This document shows positions 34,521-42,815 of a stretch of 64,000 nt of DNA, piece by piece. The translations under genes were made by a program, and so were the position numbers. Source of the DNA: Candidatus Bathyarchaeota archaeon (GTDB lineage: Archaea > Thermoproteota > Bathyarchaeia > 40CM-2-53-6); assembly GCA_005884195.1 (NCBI GenBank), contig VBBP01000050.1, positions 36,345-100,344 on the forward strand, read 5' to 3'. The notes under the pieces are model-generated. The model was not told where the DNA came from. It made no database searches and was given only the letters and a program-made list of their open reading frames with translations. The stretch's first letter is position 1. Each line of letters opens with the position of its first letter.

Positions 34521-35603
34521 GTGATTGCGTTGGCCAACTACAAGCGGGAGGAAATTGAGGGCAAGATTCAGAGTCAAACTACTTCAACAGGTCAGGTCAT
34601 AGTCAACTCAGGCCTCGTCTTGCCTACGGAGACAAAGATTACCGAAGCTGCCGCTCTGGTTCAAACGGCTGTGAGTCAAGTTGAGCCTCGAACCTGGGCT
34701 GTATACTCTGGGCTCGTTCTCACGATGTTCATCTGGGGACTCGCGTGGCCTGTCGGACGAGCCCTCGAGATAGCAAATCTCCCACCAGTCTCTATAGCCG
34801 CGATAAGATACACAATTGTCGTCCCAATCCTATTCGCTATTCTCTGGTTGAGAGAAGGGTCCTTCAGAATCGACAGATCATGGATACCAACACTTGTGAT
34901 AATGGGCGTCCTCAACACGACACTCTATCAGATCTTCTTTCTCTACGGGGTCAAGTATGCGGCTGCTAGCGACGACTCGTTAGTTATCGGATTCGGTCCA
35001 GTGTTGATAGCCATCATGGCCAGTTTCGTCCTCAAAGAGCGCCTGTCCGGGACCAAGGTTCTGGGATTCGCCTCCGGACTTGCAGGAATCGTCGCGATTT
35101 CCCTGTTCTCACCTAACACCGGCGCTGGGTTTTCCAACCGACTGCTAGGAGTGACCTTGGTTTTTGGGGGCGCCACTGCATATGCTCTGTACACGATAAT
35201 TCTGAGAAGATTCATTGCGGCCAACCATAGCGAGAACCACGGCTCCCAACCTTCTTCGTTATCGATACTCTCATGGATCAGCCTCTTCGGATGGTTCTTC
35301 TTCATACCCTTCTCGTTACTAGAAGCTCCCTGGGACTACACATGGGATGCCGCCTCTTGGGCGGGAATAATCTACCTGGCCGTATTGTCAACCGTCGTCG
35401 GGTACTTCCTCTACATTGAAGGTGTCTCAAAGATCGGAGCAGGACGGTCGGCAATATTTGGGAATCTTGTCCCAGTATTCGGGGTCCTCACGTCGTATCT
35501 TCTGCTCGGAGAGAGCCTTAGCTCCTGGACCGCAGTCAGCTTCCTCCTTATCTTCGCTGGAGTACTATTGGTTAATCGAAAGCCGAAGAGCTCCGGTTCC
35601 TGA
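34521..35603 (+). CDS. EamA/DMT-superfamily transporter
   Basis: 360 residues, GTG start. A polar N-terminal extension of about 55 residues precedes ten helices in two EamA repeats; typical stretches are MFIWGLAWPVGRALEIANLPPVSIAAIRY in the first and LLLGESLSSWTAVSFLLIFAGVLLVNR in the second. Drug/metabolite transporters export metabolites, amino acids or nucleotides; the substrate here cannot be assigned. Confidence 0.88.
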   Translation: MIALANYKREEIEGKIQSQTTSTGQVIVNSGLVLPTETKITEAAALVQTAVSQVEPRTWAVYSGLVLTMFIWGLAWPVGRALEIANLPPVSIAAIRYTIVVPILFAILWLREGSFRIDRSWIPTLVIMGVLNTTLYQIFFLYGVKYAAASDDSLVIGFGPVLIAIMASFVLKERLSGTKVLGFASGLAGIVAISLFSPNTGAGFSNRLLGVTLVFGGATAYALYTIILRRFIAANHSENHGSQPSSLSILSWISLFGWFFFIPFSLLEAPWDYTWDAASWAGIIYLAVLSTVVGYFLYIEGVSKIGAGRSAIFGNLVPVFGVLTSYLLLGESLSSWTAVSFLLIFAGVLLVNRKPKSSGS

Positions 35604-35655
35604 GCCCATTTCTAATACTCTTAACTTCAAGAGAGCGCGAGGAGCGTTACCTCTC

Positions 35656-36561
35656 TTGGGCCTAGACCTTTCAGTATCATCCCGTAGTGCTGAGAAGCGT
35701 CTCTGGATCGCTCTCATCATATCCTCAGTAATTGCCATCATTGAGTTCACCGGGGGTTTTCTGGGCCAGAGCCTCGCATTGGTCAGCGACTCCGGCCACG
35801 TCCTAACCGACGTTCTAGCGGTTGGTGTAGGCATCCTCACACTAAGACTGGGACGGAAGCCTCATACTGCAAGACGGACCTTCGGCTATCATAGAGCAGA
35901 GATTTTCGCGGCCCTGATCAATGGGTCTGTCCTGATAGCTGCTGCCTTCCTGATAATTTTCGAAGCGTACCTGAGACTTCGACAACCTCCAACGGTCCAA
36001 GGACCGCTCGTCCTAGCAATAGCATCAATCGGTCTCCTGGGAAACCTCTCTAGCGCGGTCTTGTTGTCCCAGTCGAGAGGGTCCAATCTCAATGTCAAGG
36101 GCGTATTCCTCCACACGGTCGGAGACGTCCTCTCATCCCTAGCCGTGATCGTTAGCAGTCTGATCGTGATATTCACGGGGTACCTTGGAATTGACCCCCT
36201 CGCCGCAGCTATCATCGGTGTCTTGATTATGCGAAGTGCCCTTGTCCTCGTCAGAGACTCGACAAACATCCTTCTCGAAGCAACCCCGCGACAGATGCAA
36301 CTAGAGACCATAGCCAAGACAATTCGCAGCGTCGACGGGGTGAAGGGAGTGCACGACCTTCACGTTTGGACCATTACATCGGGTCTCTACGCGCTCAGCG
36401 GACACGTTACCGTAGGCACCGACAGCATCGGTCAAGGCTCAACAATCGTGGAGAAGATAGAAGCCAAGCTAAAGGAATCATTCGGAATAGAACACGTCAC
36501 CCTTCAAGTCGAGAAAGAGACGCTAGAGAATATTCAGGAACATGAATCTTCTACGATTTAA
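35656..36561 (+). CDS. cation diffusion facilitator (CDF) metal exporter
   Basis: 301 residues from the TTG at 35656, which has a GAGGAG motif about ten bases upstream; the open frame runs further back but overlaps the EamA gene and has no CDF character. Six helices are visible with metal-site residues in LALVSDSGHVLTDVLAVG (D and H) and LHTVGDVLSSLAVIV, and a C-terminal cytoplasmic domain (VDGVKGVHDLHVWTITSG) with conserved HDLHVW. CDF proteins export Zn, Co, Fe or Mn in exchange for protons. Confidence 0.9.
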   Translation: MGLDLSVSSRSAEKRLWIALIISSVIAIIEFTGGFLGQSLALVSDSGHVLTDVLAVGVGILTLRLGRKPHTARRTFGYHRAEIFAALINGSVLIAAAFLIIFEAYLRLRQPPTVQGPLVLAIASIGLLGNLSSAVLLSQSRGSNLNVKGVFLHTVGDVLSSLAVIVSSLIVIFTGYLGIDPLAAAIIGVLIMRSALVLVRDSTNILLEATPRQMQLETIAKTIRSVDGVKGVHDLHVWTITSGLYALSGHVTVGTDSIGQGSTIVEKIEAKLKESFGIEHVTLQVEKETLENIQEHESSTI

Positions 36562-37491: not shown

Positions 37492-38412
37492 CTAATGGAC
37501 CAGTTCCTTTGGAACCATCCTCATAGCTTCCGCATGTGGGTTCTCTGGGAACAGCTCGGGATGTATCATGTGAGCTAGGATCTCAAGTCCATCTACCACC
37601 CTGGGGCCTGACCTGCTGAAATACGCGGACGCATTGACCGCATAGATTCTCGAGGACTGGAACGCCGGGATCTTCTCCCATCCTTCGTACGACGCCAGTA
37701 CGTGGGCCTCTTCCATAACTTGACTTGTCTCGAACCCGCAGGGAGAGAGTACGACTATCTCGGGTCGGTACTCAACAACTTCGTCCCATCCTATTCTGTG
37801 GGAAGGCTTGCCGAGACGGCCAAGCCCGTCGACTCCTCCAGCGTAATCGACCATCTCGGGAATCCAGTGTCCGCCCGTCCAGGGAGGCTGAAGCCACTCC
37901 ATAAAGAAAACCCGCGGCCTATGTCGTACCGTCTGCGCTCTCTCCTTCACCATGTCTATTCTTTGAAGCATCTGCCGAGCCAGTTTCTCAGCCTCGCCCA
38001 GCCTGCCTGTCATCCTGCCAACCAGCAAGATGTTGTCGACAATCTCTTCCAGATTCGTCGGTTCTAGCGAGACGATCTTCGTATCTGCATTCAAGACCCG
38101 AGCCGCTTCCTTGACCTTAGTATAGGAAACAGCACAAACATGACAGAGTTCCTGAGTCAGAATAAGATCCGGCTTCAACTTCTCAAGAAGCTTCTCATCA
38201 ATCTCGTAAATGTCGCCTCCGCGCTGTCCCACTTCCCGGTCAACTTCCAAGCTTCTGTGGATCCTCTGGTGGATCACCGACTTCGTCAAAACCGGCCGAT
38301 TGGACGCTTCATGAGGATAGTCACACTCATGGGACACCGCGACAACTTGGTCTCCAAGACCGAGAGCGAATGCAATCTCTGTGGCGCTGGGGAGTAGGGA
38401 GCAAATTCTCAT
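37492..38412 (-). CDS. BtuF-like corrinoid-binding protein
   Basis: 306 residues. MRICSLLPSATEIAFALGLGDQVVAVSHECDYP is the start of the cobalamin-binding BtuF fold, with LKPDLILTQELCHVCAVSY and FFMEWLQPPWTGGHWIPEMVDYAGG as further family blocks. There is no signal peptide or lipobox, so it may be cytoplasmic or a scavenging protein, as in many archaeal homologues. It is divergent, across 81 bases, from the ECF S-component gene, and the shared promoter region carries the dyad described under the regulatory features. This places it in the corrinoid-linked regulon. Confidence 0.82.
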   Translation of the reverse strand: MRICSLLPSATEIAFALGLGDQVVAVSHECDYPHEASNRPVLTKSVIHQRIHRSLEVDREVGQRGGDIYEIDEKLLEKLKPDLILTQELCHVCAVSYTKVKEAARVLNADTKIVSLEPTNLEEIVDNILLVGRMTGRLGEAEKLARQMLQRIDMVKERAQTVRHRPRVFFMEWLQPPWTGGHWIPEMVDYAGGVDGLGRLGKPSHRIGWDEVVEYRPEIVVLSPCGFETSQVMEEAHVLASYEGWEKIPAFQSSRIYAVNASAYFSRSGPRVVDGLEILAHMIHPELFPENPHAEAMRMVPKELVH

Positions 38413-38450
38413 TTTCGGACCTTGTAGCTCACTTCATTGTTCTAGGAAAG

Positions 38451-38482
38451 GATATATTTAACGGGCGGGTAACTTTGCCCGC
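38451..38482 (+). promoter_or_regulatory. promoter and 18-bp dyad between BtuF-like and ECF-S genes
   Basis: A TATA-like GATATATTTA (38451-38460) is followed by GCGGGTAACTTTGCCCGC (38465-38482), an imperfect dyad in which 14 of 18 positions are symmetric. The same 18 bases, plus three more downstream, recur at the toroid gene promoter (41381). The element lies nine to eleven bases before the TTG start at 38494, so bound protein would cover the transcription start. Confidence 0.7.
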
Positions 38483-38493
38483 TTCTCCCGCCC

Positions 38494-39174
38494 TTGAGCA
38501 ACCAACTCAGCCCACCAATGGTCTTCGACCGACCGTCAACTAAAGCCATGATTGTATCAGTTTTCACCGCACTTTCCCTTGCGACCAACTATGCGCTCAT
38601 CGGTTTTCAAAACGTCAAACTAATGGACACTCTGGTCTTCATCGTTGCATTTCTCTTCGGCGTTCGGCTTGGAATCGGAGTCGCCGTATCTACTTGGCTC
38701 GTCTATGGGCTGGTCAATCCCAACGGGGTGGACGGTCCCATCATCCTATCTTTCTTGATCCTGGGAGAGTGTTTCTACGCCCTCAGCGGAGCTATCCTCA
38801 GCCGAACCTCTGTCGGCCAAGAACTCTCGAAGGTGAAACCGACTGATGATAGCCCGAGAATTACGGGAAGAACTGGCGTCTTCCGAAGCCTCGGTCGACG
38901 AATTAGAAGACTGAATCCGACCCGGAGCCTTGTATTCGCGCTGGTTGGCTTGCAAGCCACTTTTGGTTACGATCTGCTCACAAACTTTGCAAGCTGGCTC
39001 TTCTTGACCACTTCTCTCTATCAGGCCTTCATCATAGGCAACATTATCGGTGCCCCCTTCTCAGTTGCGCACGAGGGTAGCAATGCAATATTCTTCGCAA
39101 CCGTGGCGCCTGCTGTTATCGTTGCAGCTAGACGTATGGGAATAGGATTCCACGCAAGAGGTCGACTCAATTGA
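38494..39174 (+). CDS. ECF-type transporter S component (putative corrinoid/vitamin binding)
   Basis: 226 residues, TTG start, with five or six helices. The first half (AMIVSVFTALSLATNYALIGF, then LMDTLVFIVAFLFGVRLGIGVAVSTWLVYGLVNPNG) has the look of energy-coupling-factor substrate-binding subunits, in which the early helices bind the vitamin and the group-I site contacts EcfT. No EcfA or EcfT gene is in the window, so shared energising modules encoded elsewhere are expected. The DUF4430 gene starts within its stop codon (TTGA overlap). The vitamin is inferred to be a corrinoid from the neighbours. Confidence 0.7.
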   Translation: MSNQLSPPMVFDRPSTKAMIVSVFTALSLATNYALIGFQNVKLMDTLVFIVAFLFGVRLGIGVAVSTWLVYGLVNPNGVDGPIILSFLILGECFYALSGAILSRTSVGQELSKVKPTDDSPRITGRTGVFRSLGRRIRRLNPTRSLVFALVGLQATFGYDLLTNFASWLFLTTSLYQAFIIGNIIGAPFSVAHEGSNAIFFATVAPAVIVAARRMGIGFHARGRLN

Positions 39175-39692
39175 GGGTCGGTTTCATCAGCCAGCACAAG
39201 GTATTCTTTTCAATCATCATTCTATTAGCCGCGATAATCATCGCGGTCCAAGGTAGCGCTTTCTATTACTATCAGAAATCGAACAGCGCTTGCCCAAGTC
39301 CCTGCCAGGGATCCACGGTCACGGTCGAGACTCTGATAAACTACGGAAATGGAACTAGTCAATGGATTAACAGGACCAACATACCTTCGAGCTGGAATTT
39401 CTACGACTTGACGAATAATATCACGAAGGTTCAAGCCATGTATTATGGACCCCCGACCTCCGAGCACCTGGTGACTGGAATAAACGGTGTGCATATCAAC
39501 GGGCAATACTTCTGGAGCTTGTGGGCTGTATGCCAGAAATCTAAGGCGTGGATAGCGACAAGCGTTGGTGCCGACGCGATTCACTTTACGACCTATCATA
39601 CGCTTGCTTGGTTCTACCAAGCGGCAAACTCGCAAGACTCGTCCAACTGGAACCCACCCGTCGCTGGAGCAGCGAAAGTAACTATGTGCTAG
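39171..39692 (+). CDS. membrane-anchored DUF4430 (transcobalamin C-terminal-like) protein
   Basis: 173 residues. An N-terminal anchor (VFFSIIILLAAIIIAVQGSAF) is followed by a beta domain: STVTVETLINYGNGTSQW, HLVTGINGVHINGQYFWSLW and GADAIHFTTYHTLAWFY. The order, strand, long loop, then I-N-G-V, the Y-F-W strand and a final strand, matches DUF4430, the fold of the C-terminal domain of transcobalamin and intrinsic factor, which caps the corrinoid. The TTGA overlap couples it to the ECF S component, so it probably presents substrate to that protein outside the membrane. Confidence 0.7.
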   Translation: MRVGFISQHKVFFSIIILLAAIIIAVQGSAFYYYQKSNSACPSPCQGSTVTVETLINYGNGTSQWINRTNIPSSWNFYDLTNNITKVQAMYYGPPTSEHLVTGINGVHINGQYFWSLWAVCQKSKAWIATSVGADAIHFTTYHTLAWFYQAANSQDSSNWNPPVAGAAKVTMC

Positions 39693-39695
39693 GAT

Positions 39696-41321
39696 TCAGG
39701 TCTTACCGTCAGCTCTATCCTTCTCCATCTTGTCTTTCATCCTGCGGTTGAATGCTCCGTAGCCACCGCCGCCAGGAGTTGTCACAGTTAGAACGTCACC
39801 ACTGTTTGCAGTAAGGGTTGTCTTTGAAGACAAACCGGTGATCAGGTTTCGCCGTACGATTCCATATGCGCCCGGTGATCCTGACATTCCTCCTGACAAT
39901 CCCCAAGGTCCGTGGCGTTGTCGCTCTCCCATCAACGAGATGGTAGATTCCCCGGCCAACACCTCTGTGTCTCTCCTGATGCCTAGTCCTCCCCGAAACT
40001 TTCCTTTTCCACCAGAGCCTCGTACCAGTTCGTACTTCTTGATCCTCAGGGGATATGCTGATTCCAGGGATTCTACAGGCGTGTTCAATGTATTAGTCAT
40101 GTGACTATGAATTCCGTCAACCCCGTCTTTGCTGTGCCGGGCGCCGAACCCGCCAGCGATAGTCTCATAGTAGGTGAAGTATTTCCCGGTCCGTGGGTCA
40201 ATTCCTCCCATGGTTACGTTGTTCATTGTTCCTTGACAAGCAGCACATACTCTTTCTGGAGTGATACTAGAGAAGGCCTTGAGAGTCACGTCAACAATTC
40301 GTGTCGACGTTTCCACATTCCCACCTGCCACTGGCGCAGGCGGTTCCGCGTTTACAATGGTCCCGGATGGTGCTGTAACCTGAATGGGTTTGAAGCAGCC
40401 TGCGTTTGCGGGAATCGAAGGATCAGTCACGCACCTTACCACGTAGTAGACGGCTGACAGAGTGACGCTGTATACAGCGTTCAAGGGTCCCTGAACCTGT
40501 TTCGCAGAACCGGAGAAATCAAATGCTATTGATTGTGGACCAATAGTGACTTTGACCTTTACCGGGATATCAGTTGTACCAAAACCATCGTCGTCGAGAT
40601 AGTCAACCGCCGAAGACGACTTTCTAGGCAACTCCTGAATCCTCTTGAGCATCAGCTCCTCGGAGTAATCGATCAATTGATCCATACCCGTCTGAACTGT
40701 TGAGGGTCTCGATTTCTTTAGTAACTCTACCAAACGTTTCGCGGCCACAAGATTCGCGGCCCGTTGCGCTCTGAGATCTCCCAATCTCTCGTCAGGCGTC
40801 CGAACATTCGACAAGACGAAGTCGAGGATTTGCCGGTTCTGTTTGCCCCTTGTCCAGATTTTGATAGGGGGAATGCGGATTCCTTCCTGGTTAACGTCTC
40901 TTGATAGAGCCGACATGCTTCCAGGCGTTACTCCTCCAACGTCGGAGTGATGGGCACGGTTTGCCGCAAACCCGATTAATCGCTCCTTGAAGAAGATCGG
41001 TGAAACCATGGTAATGTCCGGAAGATGAGTCCCGCCCCGGTACGGATCGTTGAGGATGATGTCGTCACCTTCCGAAAAGTCATCTTTGAACTCTTTCAGG
41101 ACTGACTGTACCGAGTAGGGCATCGCGCCGAGATGGACTGGAATGTGCTCGGCTTGAGCCACTAGTTGTCCTGATGTGTTGAATAGGGCGCAGGAGAAAT
41201 CTCTCCTCTCTTTGATGTTGGGGGAGAAGCTGGATTTTCGGAGGACGACTCCCATCTCTTCAGCGATCGAAATTAGTGAGTTCTTGAGAATCTCGAAGGA
41301 TATCGGGTCAAGATTCTCCAT
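39696..41321 (-). CDS. hyuB: N-methylhydantoinase B / 5-oxoprolinase B-type subunit
   Basis: 541 residues, typical length. It begins DPISFEILKNSLISIAEEMGVVLRKSSFSPNIKERRDFSCALF, the standard HyuB opening, and includes DIILNDPYRGGTHLPDITMV and the late RGGLGIRRDTEVL and PGGGGYG motifs. With HyuA it forms an ATP-dependent amidohydrolase acting on hydantoins, 5-oxoproline or related cyclic amides, or an acetone/acetophenone carboxylase-like enzyme. The partner hyuA lies 2.5 kb away on the same strand rather than adjacent. Confidence 0.92.
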   Translation of the reverse strand: MENLDPISFEILKNSLISIAEEMGVVLRKSSFSPNIKERRDFSCALFNTSGQLVAQAEHIPVHLGAMPYSVQSVLKEFKDDFSEGDDIILNDPYRGGTHLPDITMVSPIFFKERLIGFAANRAHHSDVGGVTPGSMSALSRDVNQEGIRIPPIKIWTRGKQNRQILDFVLSNVRTPDERLGDLRAQRAANLVAAKRLVELLKKSRPSTVQTGMDQLIDYSEELMLKRIQELPRKSSSAVDYLDDDGFGTTDIPVKVKVTIGPQSIAFDFSGSAKQVQGPLNAVYSVTLSAVYYVVRCVTDPSIPANAGCFKPIQVTAPSGTIVNAEPPAPVAGGNVETSTRIVDVTLKAFSSITPERVCAACQGTMNNVTMGGIDPRTGKYFTYYETIAGGFGARHSKDGVDGIHSHMTNTLNTPVESLESAYPLRIKKYELVRGSGGKGKFRGGLGIRRDTEVLAGESTISLMGERQRHGPWGLSGGMSGSPGAYGIVRRNLITGLSSKTTLTANSGDVLTVTTPGGGGYGAFNRRMKDKMEKDRADGKT

Positions 41322-41351
41322 GGTGGGTTCCGGCCCTTCGGGTTGCCTTGT

Positions 41352-41401
41352 TTAGCTTATATGGAGGTGTTACTTTCTGAGCGGGTAACTTTGCCCGCTT
41401 C
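41352..41401 (+). promoter_or_regulatory. toroid-gene promoter with the second copy of the 18-bp dyad
   Basis: A CTTATATGG box (41356-41364) reads as a TATA-like element in both directions and may serve the toroid gene and hyuB. The dyad GCGGGTAACTTTGCCCGC occupies 41381-41398 and is followed by TTC, identical over 21 bases to the copy at 38465. It overlaps the likely TTG start at 41391. Confidence 0.65.
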
Positions 41402-42815
41402 GAGAGTTCCCGTAGTTCTGACTATCTTGATCGTTCTATCCGCCGCAGCAATCACAATTCCTGCCTACCACCCTCCGATTGCAGGTCAGCCGATTGCACG
41501 ATTAGCTCCCTCTACTTTTTCATCCGCGATAAACTCGGCTCTTCTATGGCTGGCACATAACCAGTCTATAGATGGCTCGTATGGAGCGTATCAAGAGCAC
41601 TTAGCCGCGGCTGCCGCTTACGCTCTATGGCTCAACAGCTCAAGTTCAGCAAAGGCAGCTCTGTCTTATTCATGGTTGGCACATCAACTGAACAGTTCGT
41701 CAGCCTGGTTCTGGGGTCAACACGGAGAGGCTGACGTGCCTGGAGCGGTGTTGTACAGTCTGGCTTCGAGCTCAAACAAAGCTCTCGTCAACATTACTTT
41801 CGTCGAGGACAGTCTTCTACAGTTCCAGAGGCCCGAGGGCGGTTTTGCAGGATACTACGATGTATCCTTGTCCCAGACAGTTACTAGCAGTGTCGACACT
41901 GACATGGCACTCTTCGCACTCACTAGCGCAAAGGCGATCCCTGTCTCTAATCAGACCAATGCGATCAACTACGTTCTCTCGCTTCAGAATTCTGACGGCA
42001 GTTTTAACCTCACTAGCAGTACGCGATTCGACTCGTTCTATTCTCTTGGTCCTGATTCTGTTAGCATCACCGCGTTGACCCTTCTCGCCCTGAAGGGTGC
42101 AGGGTTTTCGCATGATGATTCTCACGTTTCAAACGCGCTAACATTTCTCAGCACTGCAGCTTCTTCCGACTTTGATGGGCATGTGTACGCTGCAGCGATC
42201 TCCGCTCTGGCGTTCAAGGCCTACGACGAGCCTGCGAGCACGGTCACAGCAGCTGTGTACATTCTTTCTCAACAGAACATTGATGGTGGGTTCAGTGATA
42301 CTAGTCGCTCTTCTCATCCTCAATCGAATGCGCTTGATACAGGATGGGCCGCTATCGCGCTCGAGGCCAAATTCTCCGAGGAGGTTCCGCCGGCCACAAT
42401 AAACAGTCCACCCACGGCCGCCTTCGTCTACGATCCTGCATCGCCAAGCGTCGGGGTGACGGTTCATTTCGACGCGAGTTCCTCGCACGACTCGGATGGC
42501 GACCAATTATCGTATCTGTGGACCTTCGGCGACGGTTCCACCGCGGCTGGCTCGACCCCGAGTCATAGCTATTCTCAGCCAGGCAATTACACCGTCACCC
42601 TTACCGCGATGGATTCGGGGACTAACCCGGCAGATCTGTCCAACACCAAGTCTCAAACGGTAAAGGTTCAACCTGCAAATGTTCAGAATACCTCTGGGTT
42701 GCCCTTCACAACTGTGGGGCGGGCCATAGTTCTGGCACTTGTAGGACTAGCTGTCGTCGCCGGGGTCGCTGTCTATCTTGTCCGGAGGAGGGCTGCACGA
42801 CCAGCGACGGTCTAA
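41391..42815 (+). CDS. secreted alpha/alpha-toroid (squalene-cyclase-like) protein with PKD domain
   Basis: 474 residues from the TTG at 41391; ATG 41361 is also in frame but lies within the promoter box. A signal peptide (VPVVLTILIVLSAAAITIPAY) is followed by prenyltransferase/squalene-cyclase repeats, for example INYVLSLQNSDGSFNLTSS and VYILSQQNIDGGFSD, building an alpha/alpha barrel of about 290 residues. A PKD domain (LSYLWTFGDGSTAAGS with PGNYTVTLTA) and a C-terminal anchor (IVLALVGLAVVAGVAVYLV) follow. The barrel is the fold of the N-terminal domain of intrinsic factor and transcobalamin. Together with the DUF4430 protein it would recreate that two-domain corrinoid clamp. Confidence 0.78.
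   Translation: MPASRVPVVLTILIVLSAAAITIPAYHPPIAGQPIARLAPSTFSSAINSALLWLAHNQSIDGSYGAYQEHLAAAAAYALWLNSSSSAKAALSYSWLAHQLNSSSAWFWGQHGEADVPGAVLYSLASSSNKALVNITFVEDSLLQFQRPEGGFAGYYDVSLSQTVTSSVDTDMALFALTSAKAIPVSNQTNAINYVLSLQNSDGSFNLTSSTRFDSFYSLGPDSVSITALTLLALKGAGFSHDDSHVSNALTFLSTAASSDFDGHVYAAAISALAFKAYDEPASTVTAAVYILSQQNIDGGFSDTSRSSHPQSNALDTGWAAIALEAKFSEEVPPATINSPPTAAFVYDPASPSVGVTVHFDASSSHDSDGDQLSYLWTFGDGSTAAGSTPSHSYSQPGNYTVTLTAMDSGTNPADLSNTKSQTVKVQPANVQNTSGLPFTTVGRAIVLALVGLAVVAGVAVYLVRRRAARPATV

What the first reader, a model, noticed from the sequence alone, without database searches (positions are those of the whole stretch)
37492..42815. Split transcobalamin-like corrinoid capture system with ECF S component
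Four genes combine parts of the animal intrinsic factor/transcobalamin design. The toroid protein (41391-42815) has the alpha/alpha barrel of the N-terminal domain; the DUF4430 protein (39171-39692) has the C-terminal cap fold. They are separate polypeptides, both membrane-anchored with their binding domains outside. An ECF-type S component is translationally coupled to the DUF4430 gene, and a BtuF-like protein is divergent from it. The toroid and S-component units share an identical promoter dyad. Seen in sequence: domains, overlap, dyad. Known: fold relationships of DUF4430 and intrinsic factor. Inferred: that all act together on a corrinoid.
Basis: partly seen in the sequence, partly recalled or inferred. 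Interest (0 to 1): 0.85.

Follow-up and report, generated by a model that had tools for sequence, protein, structure and literature searches.

The report
Split transcobalamin-like vitamin B12 importer
A soil archaeon that apparently cannot make vitamin B12 carries a likely B12 uptake system in which the two halves of the human B12-carrier design are made as separate surface proteins beside a B12-type membrane importer, all switched by the same short DNA signal.

Summary
In a soil bathyarchaeon (names of near relatives), an ECF S component (38494-39174) overlaps by 4 bp an anchored beta-grasp protein (39171-39692). An anchored alpha/alpha-toroid protein (41391-42815) lies beyond an inserted gene. 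The predicted beta-grasp structure matches transcobalamin, haptocorrin and intrinsic factor cap domains far above all else (Z 11.4-12.7; next 6.1). S and cap are adjacent in 18 of 18 family loci, and an S component lies within 400 bp at 60 of 80 DUF4430 loci across Thermoproteota. The family's S profile finds CbrT, the vitamin B12 S component, at 2.2e-21. No genome of the order has CbiC (0 of 38); the window's genome has a B12-dependent mutase subunit, an ECF motor without a neighbouring S component, and no BtuC. The 18-bp dyad is identical at all 17 toroid promoters and nearly so at 17 S promoters. The toroid is a generic alpha/alpha barrel, not specifically transcobalamin-like, and the BtuF-like gene is not a conserved part. 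Best reading: a corrinoid importer, known in outline (SLBB scavengers, 2007; ECF-CbrT, 2018), in a new split, co-regulated archaeal form. Ligand and toroid-cap cooperation remain untested.

The parts
38453..38459 (+). TATA-like box of the S-component promoter
   Evidence: read; 9-13 bp before the dyad in the 17 S promoters
38465..38482 (+). operator-like dyad GCGGGTAACTTTGCCCGC, S-component promoter
38494..39174 (+). ECF S component, CbrT-related family
   Evidence: PF12822 1.8e-6; profile of 50 family members finds CbrT 6fnp_A at 2.2e-21
39171..39692 (+). cap: N-terminal membrane anchor plus DUF4430 / transcobalamin C-domain (beta-grasp)
41357..41362 (+). TATA-like box TTATAT of the toroid promoter
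   Evidence: 22-24 bp before the dyad in 16 of 17 toroid promoters
41381..41398 (+). second, identical dyad; contains the TTG start codon of the toroid gene
41391..42815 (+). toroid protein: signal sequence, alpha/alpha barrel, PKD domain, C-terminal membrane anchor
37492..38412 (-). BtuF-like (Peripla_BP_2) protein without signal sequence; divergent neighbour, probably accessory or unrelated
39696..41321 (-). hydantoinase B, inserted between cap and toroid in the window's clade; not part of the system
   Evidence: PF02538 8.4e-213; absent between cap and toroid in L034, L035, L036, L037, L040

Best explanation
A corrinoid (vitamin B12-type) uptake system. Shown here: a membrane-anchored cap with the transcobalamin C-domain fold and a CbrT-related ECF S component are a conserved, overlapping gene pair; an anchored toroid protein is linked to them and shares their promoter dyad; the genome has an EcfA-EcfA'-EcfT motor without a neighbouring S component, a B12-dependent mutase subunit, no CbiC and no FecCD permease. 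Inferred: the cap (alone or closing over the toroid, as the two domains of transcobalamin do) captures a corrinoid outside the membrane and hands it to the S component; EcfAA'T drives import. A repressor binding the dyads between TATA box and transcription start shuts both transcription units when corrinoid is plentiful; the genome's DUF4443 winged-helix protein is the leading candidate. The BtuF-like protein is not needed.
For: Cap fold: the best 15 PDB entries are transcobalamin, haptocorrin, intrinsic factor and a DUF4430 protein, Z 11.4-12.7, next 6.1 (Foldseek). S family: CbrT 2.2e-21, next S component 5e-10; 6FNP is ECF-CbrT, which imports cobalamin and cobinamide (PMC5997447, passages). 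Linkage: S next to cap in 18 of 18 loci; S within 400 bp at 60 of 80 DUF4430 loci. Operons with all parts: L222 toroid-DUF4430 fusion, DUF4430, EcfT, EcfA, S; L223 DUF4430, EcfT, EcfA-EcfA-S fusion. A toroid-DUF4430 fusion plus S operon lies near corrinoid adenosyltransferase CobA/BtuR (L221). Need: CbiC in 0 of 38 genomes, control 7 of 14; B12-binding domain in 36 of 38; own mutase subunit TIGR00640 above cut-off. Motor. Own FecCD none. Dyad: identical over all 18 columns in 17 toroid promoters, flanks 0.46-0.55. DUF4443 lies within 1 kb of 24 of 80 DUF4430 loci and in FecCD-ABC-DUF4443 clusters in 6 of 6 non-family genomes that have it, beside CbiB or CbiA-type genes in those scanned.
Against: No binding data. 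The window family's own S profile (17 sequences) reaches CbrT only at E 0.34. 20 of 80 DUF4430 loci lack an S component by my criterion; two of these, L222 and L223, have one in the operon. Most DUF4430-S pairs have no toroid nearby (toroid-like ORF at 5 of 80), so the toroid is not essential to the pair. Toroid nearest folds are terpene cyclases. FecCD scores over its cut-off in 2 of 21 family genomes, G005 and G010. DUF4443 is also present in G001 and G020, which lack S, cap and dyad, is missing from 4 family genomes, and the own copy is not next to corrinoid genes. The dyad itself is not found in the other lineages' loci.
Confidence: 0.76

Rival explanations
1. The core is cap plus S component only; the toroid protein is a co-regulated surface protein with another job (for instance holding the corrinoid on the cell surface or an adhesin) and does not form a two-chain clamp with the cap.
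For: 75 of 80 DUF4430 loci have no toroid-like ORF; one family genome with S and cap (G018, 80% complete) has no toroid match; the toroid's nearest folds are terpene cyclases.
Against: In the order the toroid matches outside the family fall in three genomes (G025, G029, G030; E 8e-4 to 4e-5), two of which I read and found to hold toroid-DUF4430 proteins beside S components. Toroid and S share one invariant dyad, and in L033 toroid-S-cap form one unit with a single dyad.
Confidence: 0.35
2. The ligand is not a corrinoid but another vitamin, tetrapyrrole or metal complex; the 2007 SLBB paper suggested this for archaea.
For: PMC1796856 (passages) notes that archaea with such proteins often make B12 and may scavenge a distinct metabolite; the second PDB match of the S family is 4hzu_S (5e-10; recalled as a hydroxymethylpyrimidine-type S component); divergent members hit the riboflavin S family PF07155.
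Against: CbrT scores 37 bits higher and itself hits PF12822 and PF07155; 0 of 38 genomes have CbiC; corrinoid genes lie near related units.
Confidence: 0.18
3. One reading: the BtuF-like protein is a working fourth component that passes corrinoid within this system.
For: Adjacent and divergent in 10 of 18 loci and in the window, with the S dyad in the shared intergenic space.
Against: No hydrophobic N-terminus; no FecCD permease in the genome; absent from 8 of 19 genomes with S and cap.
Confidence: 0.1

Closest known systems
Animal transcobalamin, haptocorrin and intrinsic factor
   Same: Cap domain fold (Z 11.4-12.7); an alpha/alpha barrel partner exists; inferred extracellular corrinoid capture
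   Different: Here cap and toroid are two membrane-anchored polypeptides from two promoters; the barrel is nearest to terpene cyclases; coupled to an ECF importer, not to endocytosis
Transcobalamin-like SLBB proteins of bacteria and euryarchaea (Burroughs et al. 2007, PMC1796856, passages read)
   Same: Secreted or anchored SLBB domain, toroid partner, second SLBB protein, operons with CbiO/CbiQ, hosts lacking B12 synthesis
   Different: Paper describes toroid fusions and stand-alone domains and proposes another metabolite for archaea; the passages read do not describe the S-component pairing, the split pair with a shared operator or Thermoproteota
ECF-CbrT of Lactobacillus delbrueckii (PMC5997447, passages read)
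   Same: S component family (2.2e-21), motor encoded apart from the S component
   Different: No DUF4430 or toroid partner is mentioned in the passages read; host is a bacterium
BtuCDF
   Same: Inferred task; a BtuF-like gene lies next door
   Different: No FecCD permease in the window's genome; BtuF-like protein has no signal sequence

Membership tests
DUF4430 / transcobalamin-like SLBB clade | profile match to PF14478 | tested here: inconclusive
   none for the window protein; 7 of 19 homologues, best 1.4e-4
DUF4430 / transcobalamin-like SLBB clade | beta-grasp fold with the two extra strands after the helix | tested here: met
   model has seven strands with the helix after the second; 95-99 residues align to transcobalamin, haptocorrin and DUF4430 structures at 1.9-2.8 A; clade definition from PMC1796856
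DUF4430 / transcobalamin-like SLBB clade | binds B12 | not testable with these tools
   no binding assay
   two separate genes, 39171-39692 and 41391-42815
Transcobalamin / intrinsic factor | barrel specifically related to the transcobalamin barrel | tested here: inconclusive
   same fold class; listed matches are terpene cyclases and glycosidases; no transcobalamin at E 0.01 by profile
ECF S component, CbrT family | S-component fold/profile | tested here: met
   PF12822 1.8e-6 slightly under cut-off for the window protein; several family members above cut-off
ECF S component, CbrT family | closer to CbrT than to other solved S components | tested here: met
   family profile: CbrT 79.5 bits, next 42.5; window-family profile alone weak, E 0.34
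ECF S component, CbrT family | a motor (EcfA, EcfA', EcfT) in the genome | tested here: met
   one unit in L182 without neighbouring S component
ECF S component, CbrT family | transports cobalamin | not testable with these tools
   needs assay
BtuCDF | BtuC-type (FecCD) permease | tested here: not met
   none in own genome at E 0.001

The most novel reading that the evidence does not exclude
A two-chain transcobalamin: separately anchored toroid and cap close around one corrinoid at the archaeal surface and dock it onto a CbrT-type S component. The cap-S pair, found across Thermoproteota, would be a main archaeal vitamin B12 importer outside BtuCDF, controlled through DUF4443 (or, in one relative, an ArsR-DUF4430 fusion that uses the cap domain as its corrinoid sensor).
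Probability: 0.4. Interest if true: 0.75.

Novelty: new variant of a known kind. Interest (0 to 1): 0.6.

Why it matters
It would give B12-dependent soil Bathyarchaeia, and many other Thermoproteota, a B12 importer that is not BtuCDF, and would settle for these lineages the 2007 doubt whether archaeal transcobalamin-like domains serve B12 at all. A naturally split transcobalamin is also a handle on how the animal two-domain carriers clamp their ligand. The 18-bp operator and the DUF4443 link make the regulation directly testable.

Tried and rejected
BtuF as a core part: rejected. RNA element: no Rfam match in the window; the TATA-like box starts 9-13 bp before the dyad at S promoters and 22-24 bp before it at 16 of 17 toroid promoters, which fits a DNA operator better than a transcribed leader. 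A larger dyad regulon: scattered sites with 2 or 3 mismatches exist, but none with 0 or 1 away from S and toroid promoters in the order; the motif was also sought in the 80 other loci, without a site at an S or cap promoter. Toroid as a close relative of the fused toroids by sequence: not shown; the toroid profile scores 22-38 bits on the toroid proteins of those operons and about 31 bits on squalene-hopene cyclases in the PDB. PDB by cap profile: only chance matches. Transcobalamin was not among the 50 rows shown for the toroid, which excludes nothing. Mutual exclusion of S-cap and strong FecCD: 0 of 19 against 8 of 19, Fisher 0.003, but all S-cap genomes form one family, so this is one contrast; G025 and G030 carry both FecCD and toroid-DUF4430 operons. 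Literature: DUF4430 in 6 papers, none on archaeal uptake by its listing (the one passage opened concerned fish); DUF4443 in none; further searches. PMC2667541 (passages) and PMC3766115 (term search, no match) did not report this system in what I saw.

Full report
What is there. The window lies in a 1.92-Mb genome; close relatives in named records are soil MAGs mostly labelled Candidatus Bathyarchaeota. Reading 37-43 kb confirms a BtuF-like gene (37492-38412, minus), an ECF S component (38494-39174), a small anchored protein overlapping it by 4 bp (39171-39692), a hydantoinase-B gene on the other strand (39696-41321) and a toroid protein (41391-42815). Pfam gives Peripla_BP_2, ECF_trnsprt (just under cut-off), nothing for the small protein, and TED/SQHop/Prenyltrans plus PKD for the toroid.

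The small protein is a transcobalamin-type cap. DUF4430 is found in 7 of 19 members of its family alignment, best 1.4e-4. An AlphaFold2 model from 17 sequences (pLDDT 80.5, pTM 0.68) matches transcobalamin, haptocorrin and intrinsic factor first in Foldseek. In VIA-align the first 15 rows are those proteins and the DUF4430 structure 3u7z, Z 11.4-12.7, mostly about 2 A over 95-99 residues (intrinsic factor 2pmv at 6.0 A over 126), while the next entry falls to 6.1. It has a single N-terminal hydrophobic stretch, so the domain is taken to lie outside.

The toroid is a real alpha/alpha barrel but not specifically transcobalamin-like. Its model (12 sequences, pLDDT 70.8) aligns best with squalene-hopene cyclase (Z 27.2, 3.0 A, 282 residues); the sequence profile finds squalene cyclases and alpha-2-macroglobulin, no transcobalamin, at E 0.01. 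It carries N- and C-terminal hydrophobic stretches.

The S component. Seventeen family sequences reach CbrT (6fnp_A) first among PDB chains but only at E 0.34. Fifty S proteins, most chosen by position beside DUF4430 genes and by likeness to one another, not by likeness to CbrT, give CbrT at 2.2e-21 (79.5 bits), then 4hzu_S at 5e-10, then nothing better than 0.6. 6FNP is the ECF-CbrT complex, shown to import cobalamin and cobinamide (PMC5997447, passages). The window's genome has one EcfT, in an EcfA-EcfA'-EcfT unit without a neighbouring S gene.

Linkage. In the order, the cap occurs in 19 of 38 genomes, all in the window's family (19 of 21). S and cap are adjacent in 18 of 18 neighbourhoods read, and a toroid gene lies in the same locus in 14 of 18; the contig ends in three of the remaining four (L025, L030, L038) and L039 has none. 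In L034, L035, L036, L037 and L040 the order is S-cap-toroid without the hydantoinase gene; in L033 it is toroid-S-cap. So the hydantoinase gene is taken to be a later neighbour. Across the phylum DUF4430 is in 78 of 299 sampled genomes; of 80 such loci read, 60 have an S component within 400 bp (43 on the same strand, 17 opposite), and two more (L222, L223) have it in the same operon with EcfT and EcfA. Of the later 60 loci, which did not supply seeds, 44 score. Toroid-like ORFs are near only 5 of 80. Toroid-DUF4430 fusions stand in such operons in L220, L221, L222 and L239.

Need for an imported corrinoid. CbiC, a step of corrin-ring synthesis, is in 0 of 38 genomes, while the control finds it in 7 of 14. 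B12-binding domains are in 36 of 38; the own genome has a methylmalonyl-CoA mutase C-terminal subunit (TIGR00640, 154.5 bits against a cut-off of 57.45) and a methyltransferase-type corrinoid protein (the latter below family cut-offs). FecCD permeases are absent from the own genome; in the family 5 of 21 genomes have matches (2 over the cut-off, best 2.4e-15), and the 8 strong ones (E below 1e-20) are all outside the family. This is one phylogenetic contrast, not independent evidence.

The dyad. GCGGGTAACTTTGCCCGC is exact at both promoters and nowhere else in the genome. In the order, 34 sites with at most one mismatch occur in 19 genomes, exactly those with S and cap, and every one is at an S or toroid promoter. 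All 18 columns are invariant in 17 toroid promoters, against 0.46-0.55 in the flanks; in S promoters the mean is 0.987 against 0.45-0.60. A TATA-like box starts 22-24 bp before it at 16 of 17 toroid promoters and 9-13 bp before it at S promoters, and the toroid's TTG start lies inside it. The two offsets fit a DNA operator overlapping the polymerase site rather than an RNA leader (inference). The regulator is unknown. DUF4443 winged-helix genes lie within 1 kb of 24 of 80 DUF4430 loci. In the order, outside the family, DUF4443 is in 6 genomes and in all 6 forms a FecCD-ABC-DUF4443 cluster, beside CbiB (L314, L315) or a CbiA/GATase_3 protein (L313) where scanned. The family has it in 17 of 21 genomes, but also in G001 and G020, which lack the system, and the own copy (L310) is not beside corrinoid genes, so this is a lead only.

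How it most likely works. Cap, perhaps with the toroid, catches a corrinoid outside; the CbrT-like S component takes it over; the shared ECF motor imports it; corrinoid-poor cells relieve repression at the dyads. Shown: folds, linkage, operator conservation, gene complement. Inferred: ligand, order of transfer, toroid-cap clamp, repressor identity.

What was known. Burroughs et al. 2007 (PMC1796856, passages) described transcobalamin-like SLBB domains with toroid fusions in bacteria, CbiO/CbiQ operons, hosts lacking B12 synthesis, fewer members in euryarchaea, and doubted a B12 role in archaea. The present system is therefore a new variant of a known kind: a split, anchored, co-regulated form in Thermoproteota with a CbrT-type S component. 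In the searches named under Tried and rejected I found no paper describing it; subscription journals are largely not covered.

Noticed in passing
L221:6482-6970:- (relative G030): An ArsR-type helix-turn-helix fused to a DUF4430 domain, between a CobA/BtuR adenosyltransferase and a toroid-DUF4430/S operon: a candidate corrinoid-sensing regulator that uses the cap domain as sensor.
   Followed up: partly
L311-L316; L310:5035-5724:+: DUF4443 winged-helix genes form FecCD-ABC-DUF4443 clusters in six relatives, in several beside CbiB, CobD-like or CbiA-type genes; DUF4443 is thus a candidate corrinoid-uptake regulator; no paper in the library names it.
   Followed up: partly
L183:4166-5756:-: In the window's genome a NicO-type nickel/cobalt transporter and a NikR-like gene lie next to the methylmalonyl-CoA mutase B12 subunit.
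   Followed up: no
window 35416-36561 (+): A cation-efflux (CDF) gene is a more constant neighbour of the S-cap unit (16 of 18 loci) than the BtuF-like gene (10 of 18).
   Followed up: no
L223:829-3645:-: EcfA-EcfA-S fusion protein of 939 aa downstream of DUF4430 and EcfT.
   Followed up: no
L321:937-1566:- (relative G021): An S component of the same family without a cap or toroid match in the 6 kb read.
   Followed up: no
L127: A contig of this archaeal locus is filed under a Verrucomicrobia genome bin (record title); probably a binning error.
   Followed up: no
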